This document shows positions 25,691 to 34,167 of a DNA stretch of 64,000 nt, piece by piece. Source of the stretch: Singulisphaera sp. GP187 (lineage in GTDB: Bacteria; Planctomycetota; Phycisphaerae; Phycisphaerales; SM1A02); contig CAMBMO010000010.1 of NCBI GenBank assembly GCA_945868805.1, positions 1 to 64,000 of the forward strand, written 5' to 3'. The notes beneath the pieces were generated by a model. That model worked only from the letters and a program-made list of their open reading frames with translations, searched no databases and had not been told where the DNA came from. Every line of letters starts with the position of its first letter. The stretch's first letter is position 1. The position numbers were made by a program, and so were the translations under genes.

Positions 25691-25696
25691 CCATTG

Positions 25697-26551
25697 GTGC
25701 CAACCGTGACCAAGCGAACCAAGTCGATCACCTCCACCGCGATTGCCTCCTTGCTCGGCATCGCTGTGGCATCAGCGGTCAGCTGCACTGCGAGTCCAAG
25801 ACCCGGACTCGGCTATGGAGTCCTGCGCGCCTGGAACAAGACGGTCGGTGGTGAAGCGCAAAAAGAAAAATCGACTCCAGTGCACATGGAGGGCATAATG
25901 GATGTTGAAGTCGACAATTTTGCGGGCGACATCATTATCAATACGACAACACATCCTGAGAAGTGCGGCATTCAAGTTCTGCGCCGTGCGACGCAGGGGA
26001 CTGGGTATCGCTCCGAGGGAGATGCTTCGCTCGACCAGATCTTTATCAACTGGGAGATCGTGGATCGCGCAGATCGAAAGGCGCTCGTGATTCATTCCAC
26101 GACGAAGTACGAACTTCCGTGGTTTCAGGCGGCTGATATCGAAGTCACCGTGCCCGAACTTGGCGTTGCAATCGTGCGAAGTAGTCGCGGGCATGTGTAT
26201 GTGACACAATTCCAAGATGGAGTCGATATCGAGACGACCAACGGAGATGTGCGTGTCGCGACGAACACTCCGATTCGATCGCCTTCCACGATCTTGAATA
26301 AAGATGGATCGATCGACTGGCGTGTTCCTCCTCGGAGCGCCGGGAGCTATCAAATGGAGAGCATCAATGGCGAAGTTCAGGTTCGCGTTCGGGAAGGGTC
26401 CTGGCTCGCCACAGACACTCGCAATGACATGGACTCGAATTATGGAGTCTTGAACAAGGGCGCGAATCTGGTGATTCTGCGAACGGTCGGCGGCGACATT
26501 CAGATTTATGTCGGCAAGACGCCACTTGAAATGGGAACGTTTATCGACTGA
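25697..26551 (+). CDS. Exported DUF4097-like beta-repeat protein
   Basis: Starting at the GTG at 25697 the product is 284 aa. A signal segment (ITSTAIASLLGIAVASAVSC) ends at a cysteine in a poor lipobox, so lipidation is uncertain. The body is a run of short beta strands typical of DUF4097/adhesin-like beta-helices: DVEVDNFAGDIIINTTTHPE, VDIETTNGDVRVATNTPIR, YQMESINGEVQVRVREG, and ILRTVGGDIQIYVGKTPLE. No enzyme motif is present. Proteins of this kind are often found with envelope-stress genes, but none is adjacent. It converges with queF, and a nested inverted repeat (26574-26579 with 26604-26609) lies between the two stops. Confidence 0.65.
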   Translation: MPTVTKRTKSITSTAIASLLGIAVASAVSCTASPRPGLGYGVLRAWNKTVGGEAQKEKSTPVHMEGIMDVEVDNFAGDIIINTTTHPEKCGIQVLRRATQGTGYRSEGDASLDQIFINWEIVDRADRKALVIHSTTKYELPWFQAADIEVTVPELGVAIVRSSRGHVYVTQFQDGVDIETTNGDVRVATNTPIRSPSTILNKDGSIDWRVPPRSAGSYQMESINGEVQVRVREGSWLATDTRNDMDSNYGVLNKGANLVILRTVGGDIQIYVGKTPLEMGTFID

Positions 26552-26601: not shown

Positions 26602-26982
26602 TCAACCGCGTGCCCACGCAGTTGGCACGACGCCTGAGCTTGCCAAGATGCGCGAACGGATCCCCCCGCGCCCGCGCCAATCGGTCACGATCTGAAGCCA
26701 CGACGGGCTCATCGCGTCGGCGAGATCTCGACAGATTCGACTGGTGACATCCTCGTAAAAGATCCCTTCATTACGAAAGGACTGGTAGTACAACTTAAGT
26801 GACTTCAGTTCGACGCAGACAGCACGAGGTTCGTACCGAAGCGTGATCGTGCCGAAATCTGGATGTCCCGTTTTCGGACAGACCGAAGTGAATTCCTCGT
26901 TGACATGCTCGATCAGAATCGCTGAGCGACCTGCGGAAGTCGAGGGCGCATCAAAGAATTCAAGAATTTCTAGGGTCGGCAT
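26602..26982 (-). CDS. queF: PreQ0 (7-cyano-7-deazaguanine) reductase
   Basis: This 126-aa enzyme reduces preQ0 to preQ1 with NADPH in queuosine biosynthesis. The single-domain QueF motifs are clear: EFTSVCPKTGHPDFGTI at 30-46, with nucleophile C35 and catalytic D42, then CVELKSLKLYYQSFRNEGIF at 56-75 with the substrate and NADPH loop. It is shorter than B. subtilis QueF (165 aa), lacking part of the N-terminal extension. Translation follows the fused endonuclease gene by nine bases, with a GAGGG ribosome site. No other queuosine gene is in the window. Confidence 0.92.
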   Translation of the reverse strand: MPTLEILEFFDAPSTSAGRSAILIEHVNEEFTSVCPKTGHPDFGTITLRYEPRAVCVELKSLKLYYQSFRNEGIFYEDVTSRICRDLADAMSPSWLQIVTDWRGRGGIRSRILASSGVVPTAWARG

Positions 26983-26991
26983 CGATGGCCC

Positions 26992-29055
26992 TCACAGTCC
27001 ATAGGTCGTATATAACTTCAACACTTTTGGTTGATTCGGATTCGCTTGCATCGACGATCGAAACGCGCGACGCGCTTCGTCTCCGGCGTACGAATCCTTC
27101 TTCTCTGAAAGGAGCCAGCGATTGAGCGCATTGACGCCGATGCCGTTCCATGCAGGCCAGTAACGCGGATCGAGTACGACTGCCTGCCGGTATGCGATGC
27201 TCGACGAGTCGTAATGTCCGGCGCGAAACTCGGCCCATCCCAGTCGCTCGTATGTCTCGGGGACGGAAGAAAGCTTCGTCAGCGCGACTGCAGTATTGAC
27301 CGCTTCTGGATAGCGCCCGTCCGCGACATACGCGTTGACGAGATTGATCAGCAGTTGTGGCGTTTGAGGCATAAGCTCGATCGCTGCCTGATACTGTCGA
27401 ATTGCGTCTGCGGGCCTGCCCATTCGCTCGTACGCCACCCCGAGATTGACGCGTGCGGCTCCACTGTGTGGATCGAGTGTCGTGGCGCGCTCTGCGAATT
27501 GGGCGGCGACTCGCGCATCGCCGAGCGAGAGATATGCGGTCGACATGTTGAGACTCGCTTCGGCACTCTTGGGATTCGCGACGATCGCCCGTTGGTACGC
27601 CCCAATCGCCTCGCCGAGTCGACCAAGCATCTGAAGCGATCGACCGTGCCCGAACTGCGCCTGAAAATCACCCGGGTCGAGGCGCGCTGCGGTGCGGTAG
27701 TTCGGTTCGGCGTCGCTGTACTTGCCTTGCGAAAACCGAATGTCACCGATCCCGACATACGCCTGCGGAAGAAGCGGGTTTTGCGCCAGTACTTCTCGGC
27801 AGAGCGCAAGCGCGGACTCGCTATCGCCACGTTGGCGCAATTGATCCGCCATTTCCAACTGTGACCGCTGCGTTGGCGTGGGATTCTGTGGGGCGGTTCC
27901 CTTGCCAGAACCCTGATTTGCTGATCCGGGCGTTCGGCCCGACATTCTGCACCCCGAACTGCCCGCCACGATCAACGACAAGAGCATCAACACGGCGAGC
28001 ATCAAGACGATCGATCGACCGACGACTCCTCGCGGAGTTTGAGCCCGCGTCGGATTCCCGTTCGGCCTCGGAGCCGGTTTCGGAGCCGACTTCTTCGCTC
28101 GACTTACGTTTGGTGTCGCGGATCGACCGCCAAGTCGAATCGCTTCGAGCGCGTCGATGTTGACGAGATCCCAATCGCGCCCTCCCACGGGATCGTCCTT
28201 CGGCGTTTCGAGAATCATCGGCGTTTCCCGCAGTTCACGACGGGTGAGAATACCGTAAAAGCACGCATCGCCGCAGCAGCCTTGACCAATGTGCGTATGT
28301 CGATCACGACGAGACCCAAGCTCGCCAATGGAGTCGTTGACATGCACGACTCTTAAGTTTTCGAGTCCGCAAAGTTCGTCGAATTCGTCGAGCACCGCGC
28401 TTGCCTTCTTGGTCGTCGACATGTCGTACCCCGCCGCCACCACGTGACATGTGTCCAGGCACACTCCCACGCGATCGGGATCGCTCACCAGTTCGCGAAG
28501 CTTGGCAAGATGCGAAAAGTCGTAGCCCAAATTCGTCCCTGATCCCGTTGTCGTCTCCAAACATGTGATCACCTTTGCCCCCCGCAAACTTCGATGTATC
28601 TCGTCGAGTCCAGATGCGATTCGCTTCAGTCCGGCAAGTTCGTCGGCGCTGGGATCGACCCGCAAGACATTGGGACTCCCCGGCTTGCGCGGAGAGCCGA
28701 GATGCGCTCCTGGATGCATGACGCACCATGCAATGCCGAGCGCCTCGCAGCGTTGCAGTTCGTCGCGTTGGAGCGTGATCGAACGATTGCGTTGCTGATC
28801 GTCGGGTGACGCGAGATTCACGAGATACGAATTGTGGCTGACAATCCTGTGGGGCGAATCGCTCCACCCCGCTTCGCGCAACGCGACCATCCACGACTCG
28901 AGTTGCTCATCGCTGAGCGGCGGCGCACTCCACTGACGCTGGTTCTTCGTGAAGATCTGGAGCGAATCCATCCCCAAGCGGATCGCTTCGAGGATCGCCA
29001 GATGCATGCCCCCTGCAATCGAGAGATGACTTCCGTATCGAGGGCGGGTCGCCAT
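26992..29055 (-). CDS. nfo: Endonuclease IV domain fused to a membrane/lipoprotein-like TPR domain
   Basis: One uninterrupted 687-aa frame. Residues 1-305 are a complete AP endonuclease family 2, which cuts DNA 5' of abasic sites; all nine metal ligands can be placed: H74, H114, E167, D201, H204, H238, D251, H253 and E283. Residues 311-347 are a Lys/Pro/Arg-rich linker. Residues 348-365 are hydrophobic (IVLMLAVLMLLSLIVAG), ending at SSGC369, which looks like a lipoprotein signal. Residues 398-650 are seven or so TPR repeats. As it stands the nuclease and TPR would be on opposite sides of a membrane. A second internal start (TTG351 or ATG352) could make a separate TPR lipoprotein, or the fusion could be an annotation or assembly effect. 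It lies nine bases from the Gfo/Idh gene. Confidence 0.8.
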   Translation of the reverse strand: MATRPRYGSHLSIAGGMHLAILEAIRLGMDSLQIFTKNQRQWSAPPLSDEQLESWMVALREAGWSDSPHRIVSHNSYLVNLASPDDQQRNRSITLQRDELQRCEALGIAWCVMHPGAHLGSPRKPGSPNVLRVDPSADELAGLKRIASGLDEIHRSLRGAKVITCLETTTGSGTNLGYDFSHLAKLRELVSDPDRVGVCLDTCHVVAAGYDMSTTKKASAVLDEFDELCGLENLRVVHVNDSIGELGSRRDRHTHIGQGCCGDACFYGILTRRELRETPMILETPKDDPVGGRDWDLVNIDALEAIRLGGRSATPNVSRAKKSAPKPAPRPNGNPTRAQTPRGVVGRSIVLMLAVLMLLSLIVAGSSGCRMSGRTPGSANQGSGKGTAPQNPTPTQRSQLEMADQLRQRGDSESALALCREVLAQNPLLPQAYVGIGDIRFSQGKYSDAEPNYRTAARLDPGDFQAQFGHGRSLQMLGRLGEAIGAYQRAIVANPKSAEASLNMSTAYLSLGDARVAAQFAERATTLDPHSGAARVNLGVAYERMGRPADAIRQYQAAIELMPQTPQLLINLVNAYVADGRYPEAVNTAVALTKLSSVPETYERLGWAEFRAGHYDSSSIAYRQAVVLDPRYWPAWNGIGVNALNRWLLSEKKDSYAGDEARRAFRSSMQANPNQPKVLKLYTTYGL

Positions 29056-29064
29056 CGAATCCAG

Positions 29065-30120
29065 TCAGACCATGCGCGCGCCAGCGCGCTTTGCCGCTTC
29101 GACGATGCGTTGAGCGGTCCGCACTGCGGAGAATCCAGCTTCTGCGTCGACGAATGGATGACCGCCACTGCGAATCGACGAGAGGAAACTCTCCAGTTGC
29201 AACTTCAGTGGCTCGCCTTGACCGACTTCAAGCGCATCGACTTTGACAAGTTCGAGGTAGTTTAATCCGGAGAGGTCTTCACCCCGCTGGAATCGCTGGC
29301 GGATCTCAGCAAGTTGCTCTGCGTTCACCGCCTTGCGGACGACCGTCCCTCGTTTCTCGGCAAAATCAGCCGAAACATACGTGTCTTCGCTGATGATGCG
29401 AATCTTGCGTTCGGTCTTGAGCGCGAGTCGACTTGCCGTCACATTGGCCGTGCACCGAATTCCGTCCGGACCCGCTGGAAACACAAGGCGCGCGTTGCAG
29501 ACATCTTCCGCTTCACCGAGCACGCTCACAGCGTTCGCGTGGATTTCTTCTGGCTCGCTCCCCATCAGCATGATCAGTACATCGAGGTCGTGGATCATCA
29601 TGTCAAGCACGACTCCGACATCGACCGAACGAAATGTCATGGGCGAAACACGGTTGACTTCCACGAATCGCGGCCGCAAGTTCGGGATGTTTCGGATCGC
29701 CACCATCACCGGATCGAACCGCACGACATGCCCGACTTGAAGGATCGCGGGACCCGCCTTCGCCGCCTCGGCCATCGCGCGTGCTTGAATCTCGTCTGGC
29801 GCCAATGGCTTCTCGACGAGACAGTGGACTCCCGCGGCGAGGAGCTGCTCGACAATCGCCCGATGCGTCACGGTCGGCGTCGCAATCACGCATGCATCGA
29901 CTCCAGTCGCAAGAAGCTCTTTCACGGAGGCGAATGCATCGCATCCGTATTGTTCAACCATGTCCGCTCGACGATCCGAGCTCTCGTCGACCACTCCTAC
30001 CAAGTCGACGCCATCAAGTTGCGAGCAGAGTCGCGCGTGGTTGCGACCCATTCTCCCGACACCGACGACACCGCAGCGCACCACTGCGGTCGGCGACTTC
30101 GAGGCGCTTCCAGTGGTCAC
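29065..30120 (-). CDS. Gfo/Idh/MocA-family NAD(P)-dependent oxidoreductase
   Basis: This 351-aa protein has an N-terminal Rossmann fold (VVRCGVVGVGRMGRNHARL at 13-31) and the family's EKPLA signature (HCLVEKPLAPDE near 99-110, catalytic lysine included). The C-terminal beta-sheet domain contains VLDMMIHDLDVLIMLMGSE near 171-189, with the conserved histidine. Family members oxidise sugars, inositols or UDP-sugars. The VNRVSPMTFRSVDVGVVLDM stretch recalls UDP-GlcNAc 3-dehydrogenases such as WlbA/GnnA, so nucleotide-sugar chemistry is a reasonable guess. It overlaps the ATPase gene by four bases upstream. Confidence 0.87.
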   Translation of the reverse strand: MTTGSASKSPTAVVRCGVVGVGRMGRNHARLCSQLDGVDLVGVVDESSDRRADMVEQYGCDAFASVKELLATGVDACVIATPTVTHRAIVEQLLAAGVHCLVEKPLAPDEIQARAMAEAAKAGPAILQVGHVVRFDPVMVAIRNIPNLRPRFVEVNRVSPMTFRSVDVGVVLDMMIHDLDVLIMLMGSEPEEIHANAVSVLGEAEDVCNARLVFPAGPDGIRCTANVTASRLALKTERKIRIISEDTYVSADFAEKRGTVVRKAVNAEQLAEIRQRFQRGEDLSGLNYLELVKVDALEVGQGEPLKLQLESFLSSIRSGGHPFVDAEAGFSAVRTAQRIVEAAKRAGARMV

Positions 30121-30943: not shown

Positions 30944-33900
30944 TCACATTCCGCCAGTCGATCCACTCAACTGATCGCGAAGACCAGGGAAGAGTAGATC
31001 TTCGGCCTCTTGCTGAATGATGATTTCTGGCCGAATCAGGAGCAGTGTCGTCGTCTCAAGTTTGCTCGTCACCGAATTGGTGAAGAACCGATTCACGAAT
31101 GGAACCTTCGACAGCACGGGCACTCCGACTTCAATTTCGGTCTCGTTCACATCGCGTCGGCCACCGAGGAGAATCGTTCCCTTGTCCGGACACGAAACCG
31201 CCGTGTTGATCTGGGTGACGGCGACATTGGGTAGCTGAATCGTCGCGTTGAACTGACTCGACCGACCGAAGTCGCCTCCGCCGGCGGCTCCTTGGACTTC
31301 CTGCTGGTCGAAACCGATCAAAATGTTCTGAGCGAACTGGACGGTCATTGAGACGTAACGGCGATCCGCGCTCGTGACGGCCTCGATATCGAGCACAAAT
31401 CCAGTCCGAAGGTTTTGGACGATCGGGGTGAACGCACCCGAAGAGTCGCCCGTTTGTGCTTGAACATTGGCGACATACGCCTGCGAACCACCGAAAGAAA
31501 TCCAAGACCGCGAACCGTTAAAGAGTGTCAGTCGGGGTGCAGTCAGGGTCATCGCCCGCTGATCCGCCTGAGTCGCCTGAACGAGGAGATCGACCTGGAC
31601 ATCGTCGAGGTAAGTGAATCCCACCGAGAGCGCTGGATTCGCCAACGCCGCCGACGCGACTGTTCCCTTGAGTCCAGCTCCGAGCAACTGAATCAGCGGA
31701 AGACCTTCCTGCTGAACATTGACCGGAGAGATTCCATTCGAAGCATCCCCACCTGGGTAATTGACACCGTTTCGGCGGACACCGAGTGGTTCGTAAATCC
31801 CTTGCTGCTGATAGGTGATGTTTTGACCAGGCCCTGGAGTGCCGAGCGCCGATCCAGTCGCTGTCGTGTTGATCCCGTTTGCAATCGCAGCAGCGTCGGT
31901 CTGACCGAGACCACCGAAGGTGACGGGGTTCTTCAGACGACCGTTTCGACCAGGCGTGTTCTGAAAGAAGAAGTCTCGCAATTGGAAATTTGGATCCTGA
32001 TCGATCGCCGCATCAAACAACCCTGGATTCGTATTGAAGTACAGGTCGAAATCGAGACCGATCTGTTCAAACCACTGCACGTCGACCGCAATCAAGCGAG
32101 ATTCGATGTTGATTTGAATCGCGCGAACCTTTCTCAGTTGCGAGAGCAAATTCATGATCTCGCGATGCGTCTTCGGTGTCGCAGTGGCGATGAGATTTCC
32201 ACTGAAGTCATCGAGGCGACTTTCGCCCATCTGTCCAGTCTGCGCGTCCCACATCGCCTCGGGAACCATCACCTTGATGAGTTCCTTCAATCTGTTGAGC
32301 GTCTCGAGTCGCAGGTCTTCGATGCCGGCGTCGCCGCCCGATCCGAAGAGCGAACCTCCACCGCCAGCACCACCTCCACCGCCTCCTCCTCCGCCGCCGC
32401 CACCGCCGAAGCCACCACCACCACTGCCGCCTCCGCCTGAACCACCTCCACCGCCACCCTGACCGCCACCTTGATTGAGCGCAGCATCGACATTGAAGTT
32501 CGGAGCGTTGTCAAAGTACGGAACCTGATAGAGGAGATCGCGGATGTCATAGACAACCGTGACTCGACGCAAAGAGAGTTCGTTCGCCGAAGCGATGATG
32601 ATCATGCCATCCTCGACCATCCAGTCGGGACGATTCGCGCCACCCTCTTGGGTCGAAGTCGCACCCTCCTCTTCGGTGGACCTGAGCACCATGTCCAGTG
32701 CGGCAGACCAAGAAATTGGAGCGGGCATCGTCAAATTGACGATCGAATCGCGTTCGAGCGCAGGCTCTGCGGTCTTGAGCGACTTCCAGTCGACATAGAA
32801 CGGCAACCGGGTTTCGGTTTGGAAGAATTCAACAACCGCGTCGAAGGGCGTCTCAGGGAAATCGATGCGCGACTTCTCCTGCATCTTGGCGATGGATGCC
32901 CGATCGATGTCTGAATCTCGAAATCCAGATGCCGCGTATTCGCCTTCGCGACGAACTGAGAGCGCAGGCCAATCCTCTGGATACGACATCTCTCCATCAA
33001 GACTTCGCGGTCCCGGTCCACTCTCATTGATTTTCGGCGGAATGAACGATGCCTGGGCATCGACCGCGAATTCGGAGAAGGCGAACGAGCGACGGCGCTG
33101 AAGTTCGGTGTATCGCCGATACAAGATTCCTGACTGAAGGACATCACGCATCGCAAGTGCGGATGCATTCGTTGGATCACGGAAGAGAATCTCGTCAACC
33201 ACCTGAAGAGCTTCCTTGTACTTCAGTTCTGACTGAAGTTCACGAATGCGCATCATGTCCTCATTCGTCGCACGCTGATCTTCTTCCATCTTCTGACGCT
33301 TCTGAGCCGACGTCTCTTGCCTTGTCGATTGTTCGCTGACCTTCTTGTTCTCTTCGGCGGTTGCGTTCTTGCCAGAGCTGATTCGGACGAGCTCGCCCTG
33401 CACCCGAGCCATCTTGTCGTCGAAATCCGCAGGGCTCAACAACGACTGATTTCGCATCAGTTCGAGCTTGGCCTGGGTCGCCGTGCGCTCGGCAGCGGCG
33501 TAATCCCCGCGCCCGAATTGATCCCCAGCTCGAATGAGCTTGTCGTCGAAGTCGGATTGCGCCTGCTGTCGCAACACCGCGTCATCGCCGGCAACCTTGT
33601 CGATTGCTGATCCTTGATTGAGCGCTGCTTGCGCATTCGCGAGCTGTTTCGTTGCTTCGGGATCGCCAGGAACTTGCATACTGATCGCAGACCAGAGATC
33701 CGCCGCCGAAGCCCACTGACTGCGAGACATTGCTTGACGTGCCTGAACTCGAAGCATCGAAATCGTCTCTGCGGGGAGGGCCTCTGCAGTCGCAGGTGCC
33801 GTTTGATCTGACGCGGCTGGAGCTGGTTCTTCTGGAGCTGGTTCTTCTGGAGCTGGTTCTTGCGGCGGAACCGGTGGTGCTGGATCTTGCGGCGGAACCG

Positions 33901-34042
33901 GTGGTACCCCGCCCTGAGTACTCGCGCTCGCATTGAGAGCGAACGACTGGAAAGTCACAGCGAGCGCAATGACCACGCCGAACCGCGCGACTCTCACCGA
34001 GATGTCTTCCGACTGGCGTGCGATTATCAAAAACGTATTCAT
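30944..34042 (-). CDS. Type II/III secretion secretin-family protein with N-terminal TPR-like region
   Basis: From the ATG at 34042 (1032 aa, GGAG 7 bases upstream) it has a signal peptide (FGVVIALAVTFQSFALNASA at 21-40). A Pro/Glu-rich repeat with several PAPEE/PPVPPQ units covers 46-85, a helical TPR-like part about 90-330, and small secretin N-domains around 390-540. A glycine-rich stretch of about 45 residues, dominated by GGGG runs, lies near 545-590. The C-terminal secretin domain has VDLLVQATQADQRAMTLTAP, then FVLDIEAVTSADRRYVSMTV and EIEVGVPVLSKVPFVNRFFT before LLLIRPEIIIQQ. Secretins form the outer-membrane gate of secretion systems or pili. No other secretion subunits are adjacent. 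Confidence 0.88.
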   Translation of the reverse strand: MNTFLIIARQSEDISVRVARFGVVIALAVTFQSFALNASASTQGGVPPVPPQDPAPPVPPQEPAPEEPAPEEPAPAASDQTAPATAEALPAETISMLRVQARQAMSRSQWASAADLWSAISMQVPGDPEATKQLANAQAALNQGSAIDKVAGDDAVLRQQAQSDFDDKLIRAGDQFGRGDYAAAERTATQAKLELMRNQSLLSPADFDDKMARVQGELVRISSGKNATAEENKKVSEQSTRQETSAQKRQKMEEDQRATNEDMMRIRELQSELKYKEALQVVDEILFRDPTNASALAMRDVLQSGILYRRYTELQRRRSFAFSEFAVDAQASFIPPKINESGPGPRSLDGEMSYPEDWPALSVRREGEYAASGFRDSDIDRASIAKMQEKSRIDFPETPFDAVVEFFQTETRLPFYVDWKSLKTAEPALERDSIVNLTMPAPISWSAALDMVLRSTEEEGATSTQEGGANRPDWMVEDGMIIIASANELSLRRVTVVYDIRDLLYQVPYFDNAPNFNVDAALNQGGGQGGGGGGSGGGGSGGGGFGGGGGGGGGGGGGAGGGGSLFGSGGDAGIEDLRLETLNRLKELIKVMVPEAMWDAQTGQMGESRLDDFSGNLIATATPKTHREIMNLLSQLRKVRAIQINIESRLIAVDVQWFEQIGLDFDLYFNTNPGLFDAAIDQDPNFQLRDFFFQNTPGRNGRLKNPVTFGGLGQTDAAAIANGINTTATGSALGTPGPGQNITYQQQGIYEPLGVRRNGVNYPGGDASNGISPVNVQQEGLPLIQLLGAGLKGTVASAALANPALSVGFTYLDDVQVDLLVQATQADQRAMTLTAPRLTLFNGSRSWISFGGSQAYVANVQAQTGDSSGAFTPIVQNLRTGFVLDIEAVTSADRRYVSMTVQFAQNILIGFDQQEVQGAAGGGDFGRSSQFNATIQLPNVAVTQINTAVSCPDKGTILLGGRRDVNETEIEVGVPVLSKVPFVNRFFTNSVTSKLETTTLLLIRPEIIIQQEAEDLLFPGLRDQLSGSTGGM

Positions 34043-34167
34043 TCGTAACTCCGTTGGCTCCACGCGGAGAAAATCAACTCTCTCGAATCAACGACCTGTC
34101 CGTCGTACATGGGGTGGCGACCGTGCCTCTGGCAGGATTGACCCACCTCGCCTCAAGGCGAAGGGGG

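What the first reader, a model, noticed from the sequence alone, without database searches (positions are those of the whole stretch)
26992..29055. Endonuclease IV in one frame with a TPR protein carrying an internal signal-like segment
The sequence shows an uninterrupted frame in which a complete, catalytically intact AP endonuclease (all nine metal ligands placed) is joined by a basic linker to a hydrophobic segment ending SSGC and then a TPR domain. DNA repair enzymes are cytoplasmic; the second half looks like an exported lipoprotein. Either this is a real tethered nuclease, or two proteins are made from one gene by an internal TTG/ATG at codons 351-352, or a stop codon was lost by sequencing or assembly. 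All three would be new for Nfo.
Basis: partly seen in the sequence, partly recalled or inferred. Interest (0 to 1): 0.72.

Follow-up and report, generated by a model that had tools for sequence, protein, structure and literature searches.

The report
DNA-repair enzyme fused to a lipoprotein
In several groups of uncultured aquatic planctomycete bacteria the gene for the DNA-repair enzyme endonuclease IV runs without a stop into the gene for a membrane-anchored TPR lipoprotein, so a cytoplasmic enzyme and an exported protein appear to be made as one chain; the fusion is real and recurrent, not a sequencing error.

Summary
Window 26992-29055 (-) is one 687-codon frame: intact endonuclease IV (Nfo, 1-307), a disordered basic linker, one hydrophobic helix ending in a lipobox-like Cys (C369), then TPR repeats (394-684).

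It is not an error. Of 114 loci holding both genes, 45 (44 genomes, 6 of 36 genera of one family) are one frame, including 18 of 18 testable genomes of the window's genus; 69 have two genes on one strand. The fused loci are not one clade (AU p = 0.00014): the fusion arose, or was undone, more than once.

A conserved internal start is not supported. ATG in signal-peptide position: 64 of 69 separate TPR genes, 27 of 45 fused (8 of these inside the Nfo catalytic motif). Candidate ATGs in fused genes show no Shine-Dalgarno signal, unlike separate starts. Some lineages could still use one.

No xth is found in 19 genomes of the genus, so the fused Nfo is their only AP endonuclease of the two main families.

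Best reading: one chain, Nfo in the cytoplasm, an internal lipoprotein signal in the membrane, TPR outside; LspA cleavage may then separate membrane-anchored Nfo from the lipoprotein. One-chain translation is supported by sequence; topology and cleavage are inferred.

The parts
28138..29055 (-). Endonuclease IV (Nfo) domain, residues 1-306; nine metal ligands intact
   Evidence: Pfam and NCBIfam matches, PDB alignment, ligand columns, AlphaFold/Foldseek match to E. coli Nfo, TM-score by target length 0.93
28018..28137 (-). Basic, disordered linker, residues 307-346
   Evidence: pLDDT under 50 at 313-346; spacing from Nfo residue 306 to the Cys takes 11 different values among 18 fused loci of the genus, always in frame
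27949..28017 (-). Hydrophobic helix and lipobox-like end, residues 347-369 (SSGC; Cys 369)
   Evidence: helix 347-364; Cys 369 is the only invariant column between N299 and P392 in 33 fused proteins
26995..27948 (-). TPR part, residues 370-687 (repeats 394-684)
   Evidence: Pfam TPR models; helices with pLDDT over 90
29065..30120 (-). Gfo/Idh/MocA oxidoreductase, 9 bases upstream, same strand
   Evidence: order kept in the genus
26602..26982 (-). QueF-like gene, 9 bases downstream, same strand
   Evidence: order kept in the genus

Best explanation
A real gene fusion, stable within genera, of two genes that stand next to each other in the rest of the family: nfo and a TPR lipoprotein gene. The ribosome reads one chain. 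Nfo (about 307 residues) folds in the cytoplasm and works as the cell's AP endonuclease. The former signal peptide of the TPR protein, now internal, is inserted by the Sec machinery with the basic side inside, so that the TPR part is outside the cytoplasmic membrane, and its Cys is lipidated by Lgt. LspA then most likely cuts before the Cys, giving Nfo with the spent signal as a C-terminal membrane anchor and an ordinary TPR lipoprotein; if it does not cut, the product is a permanently tethered membrane protein. Shown by sequence: the one open frame, its recurrence, intact catalytic residues, retained hydrophobic segment and Cys, loss of the start signal, absence of xth, presence of Lgt and LspA genes. 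Inferred: topology, lipidation, cleavage and enzyme activity.
For: 45 of 114 loci fused in one frame, in all testable members of six genera: g1 18 of 18, g6 3 of 3, g17 4 of 4, g55 11 of 11, g60 8 of 8 loci, g62 1 of 1. In 400 genomes of the order, full-length stop-free matches in the list shown fall only in these six genera; 11 full-length matches in other families all contain a stop. 11 different linker lengths among 18 genus loci, all in frame. Start signal decayed: ATG at -45..-17 in 27 of 45 fused against 64 of 69 separate loci, Fisher p 3.1e-5; anti-SD pairing of separate TPR starts stronger than in-gene ATGs (p 6.5e-7), of fused candidates not (p 0.71), fused against separate p 0.0018. 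Nine ligands kept in 45 of 45 fused loci, apart from one row truncated before H69. No xth match in 19 of 19 genus genomes, nfo over cut-off in 19 of 19. Cys 369 invariant in 33 of 33 aligned fused proteins. Lgt and LspA genes present. AlphaFold gives two well-folded domains joined by disorder and one helix.
Against: No expression, protein or localisation data. The -3 lipobox residue is L, V or I in only 17 of 45 fused loci against 40 of 69 separate ones, so cleavage by LspA may be poor in some lineages; the window's own sequence is SSGC. 27 of 45 fused loci do have an ATG in range and 41 of 45 some start codon; in g17 (4 of 4) and in three genus g1 loci (G005, G007, G018) an ATG sits at the end of Nfo in front of a signal-like stretch. 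Linker pS 0.316 against pN 0.172 (9 pairs, not independent) shows coding constraint, but part of that stretch would be coding under either model.
Confidence: 0.72

Rival explanations
1. One gene, two starts: full-length fusion plus a shorter TPR lipoprotein begun at an internal codon.
For: The window has TTG ATG at codons 351-352 with AGGAG about 20 bases upstream. ATG kept in 4 of 4 g17 loci and in G005, G007, G018 of g1 before a signal-like stretch.
Against: ATG depleted relative to separate genes (27 of 45 against 64 of 69; 8 of the 27, all in g60, lie in the IMET catalytic motif); 4 of 45 have no ATG, GTG or TTG at -45..-17; no Shine-Dalgarno enrichment of candidates; an ATG at -17 in 3 of 18 g1 loci. 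An AGGAG 20 bases away is outside the usual spacing (recalled).
Confidence: 0.15
2. Permanently tethered bitopic protein: inserted, perhaps lipidated, but not cut, so that Nfo and TPR stay linked across the membrane.
For: Relaxed -3 position in g1, g6 and part of g55. The fusion is kept in all testable members of six genera.
Against: The Cys with a small residue before it is kept (Cys invariant in 33 of 33 aligned); this would not be needed for a plain anchor. TPR protein persists next to queF in two nfo-less genomes (G022, G025), so its work does not need Nfo.
Confidence: 0.3
3. Neutral gene fusion without a role: adjacent, partly overlapping genes lost a stop or changed frame, and the cell tolerates it.
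For: Genes overlap or abut in separate relatives: in G019 (g2) a TPR ATG lies upstream of the nfo stop, in G035 (g18) the TPR ATG lies 3 bases before the nfo stop end. Repeated origin and freely varying linkers fit low constraint.
Against: Stability within each of the six genera. This rival concerns why the fusion is kept, not what it is; it does not exclude the best explanation.
Confidence: 0.5
4. Assembly or sequencing artefact.
For: All genomes here that carry it seem to be metagenome assemblies (titles for the named ones).
Against: 45 loci, 44 genomes, different projects in the named loci, different linkers, conserved gene order.
Confidence: 0.01

Closest known systems
Endonuclease IV / Nfo (TIGR00587; E. 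coli 1qtw)
   Same: Fold, nine metal ligands, score about twice the curated cut-off
   Different: Here followed in the same chain by a membrane segment and a TPR domain; known structures end at about 285 residues
TPR lipoproteins such as PilW/PilF and Tgl (TIGR02521, NF033762)
   Same: TPR array behind a lipoprotein signal; weak matches (67.7 and 56.9 bits)
   Different: Far below the curated cut-offs (154 and 225), so not members by that test; general TPR likeness
Bradyrhizobium japonicum FbcH, cytochrome b-c1 polyprotein with an internal signal peptide (recalled; searches found no paper on it)
   Same: A bacterial precursor whose second protein is exported by an internal signal and split off
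   Different: Both halves there are membrane or exported proteins of one complex and the signal is of type I; here a soluble DNA-repair enzyme precedes a lipoprotein signal
Separate adjacent nfo and TPR lipoprotein genes in other genera of the same family
   Same: Same two genes, order and strand; 64 such loci in 30 genera, plus 5 in other families
   Different: Stop between them or different frame; own TPR start with Shine-Dalgarno signal

Membership tests
Endonuclease IV (Nfo) | Family profile over its cut-off | tested here: met
   TIGR00587 257.4 bits, cut-off 129.65
Endonuclease IV (Nfo) | Nine trinuclear metal ligands | tested here: met
   All nine in the window protein and, apart from one truncated row, in 45 of 45 fused loci
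Endonuclease IV (Nfo) | AP-site incision activity | not testable with these tools
   No biochemistry here; absence of xth in 19 of 19 genus genomes is indirect support
Bacterial lipoprotein (Lgt/LspA substrate) | Hydrophobic segment directly followed by an invariant Cys | tested here: met
   Cys 369 invariant in 33 of 33 aligned fused proteins
Bacterial lipoprotein (Lgt/LspA substrate) | Canonical lipobox [LVI][ASTVI][GAS]C (recalled) | tested here: inconclusive
   -1 is G, A or S in 45 of 45, but the script preferred such a Cys; -3 is L, V or I in 17 of 45 fused and 40 of 69 separate loci, and S in the window
Bacterial lipoprotein (Lgt/LspA substrate) | Signal at the N-terminus | tested here: not met
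   The signal starts near residue 347; no signal-like stretch opens the protein. It is therefore filed as lipoprotein-like, not as an ordinary lipoprotein
Bacterial lipoprotein (Lgt/LspA substrate) | Lgt and LspA encoded in the genome | tested here: met
   TIGR00544 179.7 bits over cut-off; PF01252 94.6 bits over cut-off
PilW/Tgl pilotin-like TPR lipoproteins | Family profile over its cut-off | tested here: not met
   67.7 of 154 bits and 56.9 of 225 bits

The most novel reading that the evidence does not exclude
A bacterial polyprotein with an internal lipoprotein signal: one gene gives a cytoplasmic DNA-repair enzyme and an exported lipoprotein, parted by the lipoprotein peptidase LspA, so that the cell's only AP endonuclease of the two main families is born at, and anchored in, the membrane; lineages of one family reached this state several times. 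A further step, not tested, would be that proteases which clear spent signal peptides free Nfo again.
Probability: 0.45. Interest if true: 0.72.

Novelty: new variant of a known kind. Interest (0 to 1): 0.55.

Why it matters
AP endonucleases repair lesions throughout the chromosome and are thought of as freely diffusing cytoplasmic enzymes. Here a lineage seems to depend on one that is made as the front part of a membrane-inserted precursor. That raises testable questions: can base-excision repair work from the membrane, can a 300-residue folded enzyme precede a lipoprotein signal without blocking export, and does LspA act on an internal signal. It also shows how adjacent genes with different destinations can fuse repeatedly, which matters for annotating streamlined genomes, where such proteins would be named after one half only.

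Tried and rejected
Artefact: rejected. Conserved internal start: tested and not supported, not excluded for single lineages. My first count of start codons (ATG in 19 of 45 fused loci, no start codon in 10 of 45, Fisher p 3.7e-9) was wrong in its window: for short linkers it did not reach back to -45. One search repeats it with full windows (27 of 45; 4 of 45; p 3.1e-5); the corrected figures are used. In one search the Cys of G014 was taken five codons too early; one search mends it. The open_frame_aa column of the genome search was first read as showing fusions in g19, g53 and G038; direct reading of the DNA showed stops, so it was not used. One ancient fusion without any loss: rejected by the AU test, on a quick gene tree with a long-branch warning; one gain with five losses is not excluded against five gains. 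TPR part as a PilW/Tgl pilotin for the secretin gene upstream: scores below cut-off, left as a lead. Literature: nfo/lipoprotein/fusion (2 papers listed), Nfo/domain architecture (2 listed; passages of PMC1274311 read, no Nfo fusion there), planctomycete/TPR/fusion (10 of 29 listed), internal signal/lipoprotein (listings only), AP endonuclease/TPR/Phycisphaerae (none). Searches for the FbcH precedent gave listings without it.

Full report
What was checked. The window holds one frame of 687 codons on the - strand at 26992-29055. Its first part is endonuclease IV (Pfam AP_endonuc_2, E 1.2e-48; TIGR00587 257.4 bits over a cut-off of 129.65), its last part a TPR array. The nine metal ligands are in place (the ligand list itself is recalled). 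An AlphaFold model from 33 fused relatives has mean pLDDT 87.3 with Nfo at 1-307, disorder at 313-346 and 366-386, a helix at 347-364 and TPR helices from 394 on; pTM is 0.52, so the mutual placing of the parts is not predicted. Foldseek's best matches are E. coli endonuclease IV (8rly_C, target TM 0.93) and, for the rear part, TPR superhelices.

Is it real? Matches with both domains were fetched from 39 relatives and then 79 more genomes of the family, picked from the listed matches, not at random. Of 121 loci with the window, 114 hold both domains; 45 are one open frame and 69 are not. The 45 lie in 44 genomes (G188 has two) and six of the 36 genera of the family that are represented: g1 (the window's own) 18 of 18, g6 3 of 3, g17 4 of 4, g55 11 of 11, g60 8 of 8 loci, g62 1 of 1. 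Three are cut by a contig end. One genus g1 genome, G017, ends before the junction and says nothing. All 12 testable g19 loci and all 10 of g53 are separate, in spite of many being in the same frame with a stop between. In the 69 separate loci the two matches are on one strand; in 67 they are 99-535 bases apart and in two g16 loci 1231 and 1481. An even draw of 400 genomes of the order gave full-length stop-free matches only in the same six genera within the list shown (45 loci by my count); 19 full-length matches in the same family and 11 in two other families hold one or more stops. Named records with the fusion are metagenome-assembled genomes, with isolate labels that include Lake Baikal (the labels are the depositors').

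How old and how often? A tree of Nfo plus TPR columns, linker left out, 90 loci, needs 5 changes of state, at least 4 forced by starred branches. Holding the fused loci as one clade is rejected, AU p 0.000139. It is a quick tree of the genes themselves, with a long-branch warning for g18 and g60. Five gains or one gain with several losses both fit; in close relatives the genes overlap or abut (G019, G035), so that a small shift or a lost stop would fuse them, which makes gains easy.

One chain or two starts? If the TPR protein were still begun by itself, its start codon and ribosome site should persist. At -45..-17 from the Cys an ATG is found in 64 of 69 separate loci and 27 of 45 fused ones (Fisher p 3.1e-5); windows of that length inside the two domains hold an ATG in 38%. 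Eight of the 27, all of g60, lie in the catalytic IMET motif. Four fused loci (G003, G009, G023, G204) have no ATG, GTG or TTG there. Pairing with the anti-Shine-Dalgarno tail is stronger before separate TPR starts than before in-gene ATGs (p 6.5e-7), not so for the candidates in fused genes (p 0.71; fused against separate p 0.0018; the best of several candidates was taken for both starts and fused candidates, which favours finding a site). Loci are related, so these p values overstate independence. Against the reading: 41 of 45 fused loci have at least one of the three codons in range, the background being 81%, and g17 (4 of 4) and three g1 loci have an ATG at the very end of Nfo before a signal-like stretch. 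The linker varies from 21 to 62 residues (Nfo 306 to Cys) within g1, in 11 values, always in frame, which is hard to explain unless it is translated.

Is the signal still a lipoprotein signal? In the alignment of 33 fused proteins the Cys is invariant, the only such column between N299 and P392. The residue before it is G in 36, A in 8 and S in 1 of 45 (the script that chose the Cys preferred these letters). Position -3 is L, V or I in 17 of 45 fused and 40 of 69 separate loci, so the lipobox is looser after fusion. Lgt and LspA genes are present. Topology with Nfo inside follows from the basic linker and the lack of any N-terminal signal; it is inference.

Is the enzyme needed? In 61 relatives nfo passes its cut-off in 48 and xth in 11, never both, and two genomes have neither. 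No xth match appears in 19 of 19 genomes of the genus; each has nfo. Other AP-site enzymes such as lyases were not searched. In G022 and G025, which have xth and no nfo, the TPR gene still sits next to queF, so the TPR protein does not depend on Nfo. In the genus the order secretin, STAS, HATPase, Gfo/Idh/MocA, nfo-TPR, queF is kept wherever the contig is long enough in the loci looked at.

Verdict. A true, recurrent gene fusion that joins a cytoplasmic DNA-repair enzyme to an exported lipoprotein through an internal signal. Parts are known; the combination was not found in the papers searched (an open-licence library). Whether LspA parts the halves decides between a bacterial polyprotein and a membrane-tethered nuclease; that needs the bench.

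Noticed in passing
61 relatives: nfo and xth exclude each other: 48 genomes with nfo over cut-off, 11 with xth over cut-off, none with both, two (G026, G028) with neither.
   Followed up: partly
L127 and L131 (G188:C4 and G188:C11): G188 (g60) has two fused nfo-TPR loci, 76% identical; the second is 97% identical to that of G194, so it may be a foreign contig in the bin.
   Followed up: partly
G010:C64 and G010:C141: Two nfo pieces overlap in query residues 75-234, so this assembly may mix two strains.
   Followed up: no
L148 (G076, g19): This separate Nfo has R in place of the metal ligand H231, the only such change in 114 loci.
   Followed up: no
L057 (G033) and L169 (G200), genus g16: Between nfo and the TPR match lies a stretch of over 1 kb; in G033 it is an open frame rich in Pro, Ala and Glu repeats that runs into the TPR part.
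   Followed up: no
window 30944-34063 (-): Secretin gene upstream of STAS, HATPase, Gfo/Idh/MocA and nfo-TPR on the same strand; a TPR lipoprotein near a secretin recalls pilotins, but profile scores are below cut-off.
   Followed up: partly
window 25694-26551 (+): DUF4097 protein with an N-terminal lipoprotein-like signal, on the opposite strand downstream of queF.
   Followed up: no
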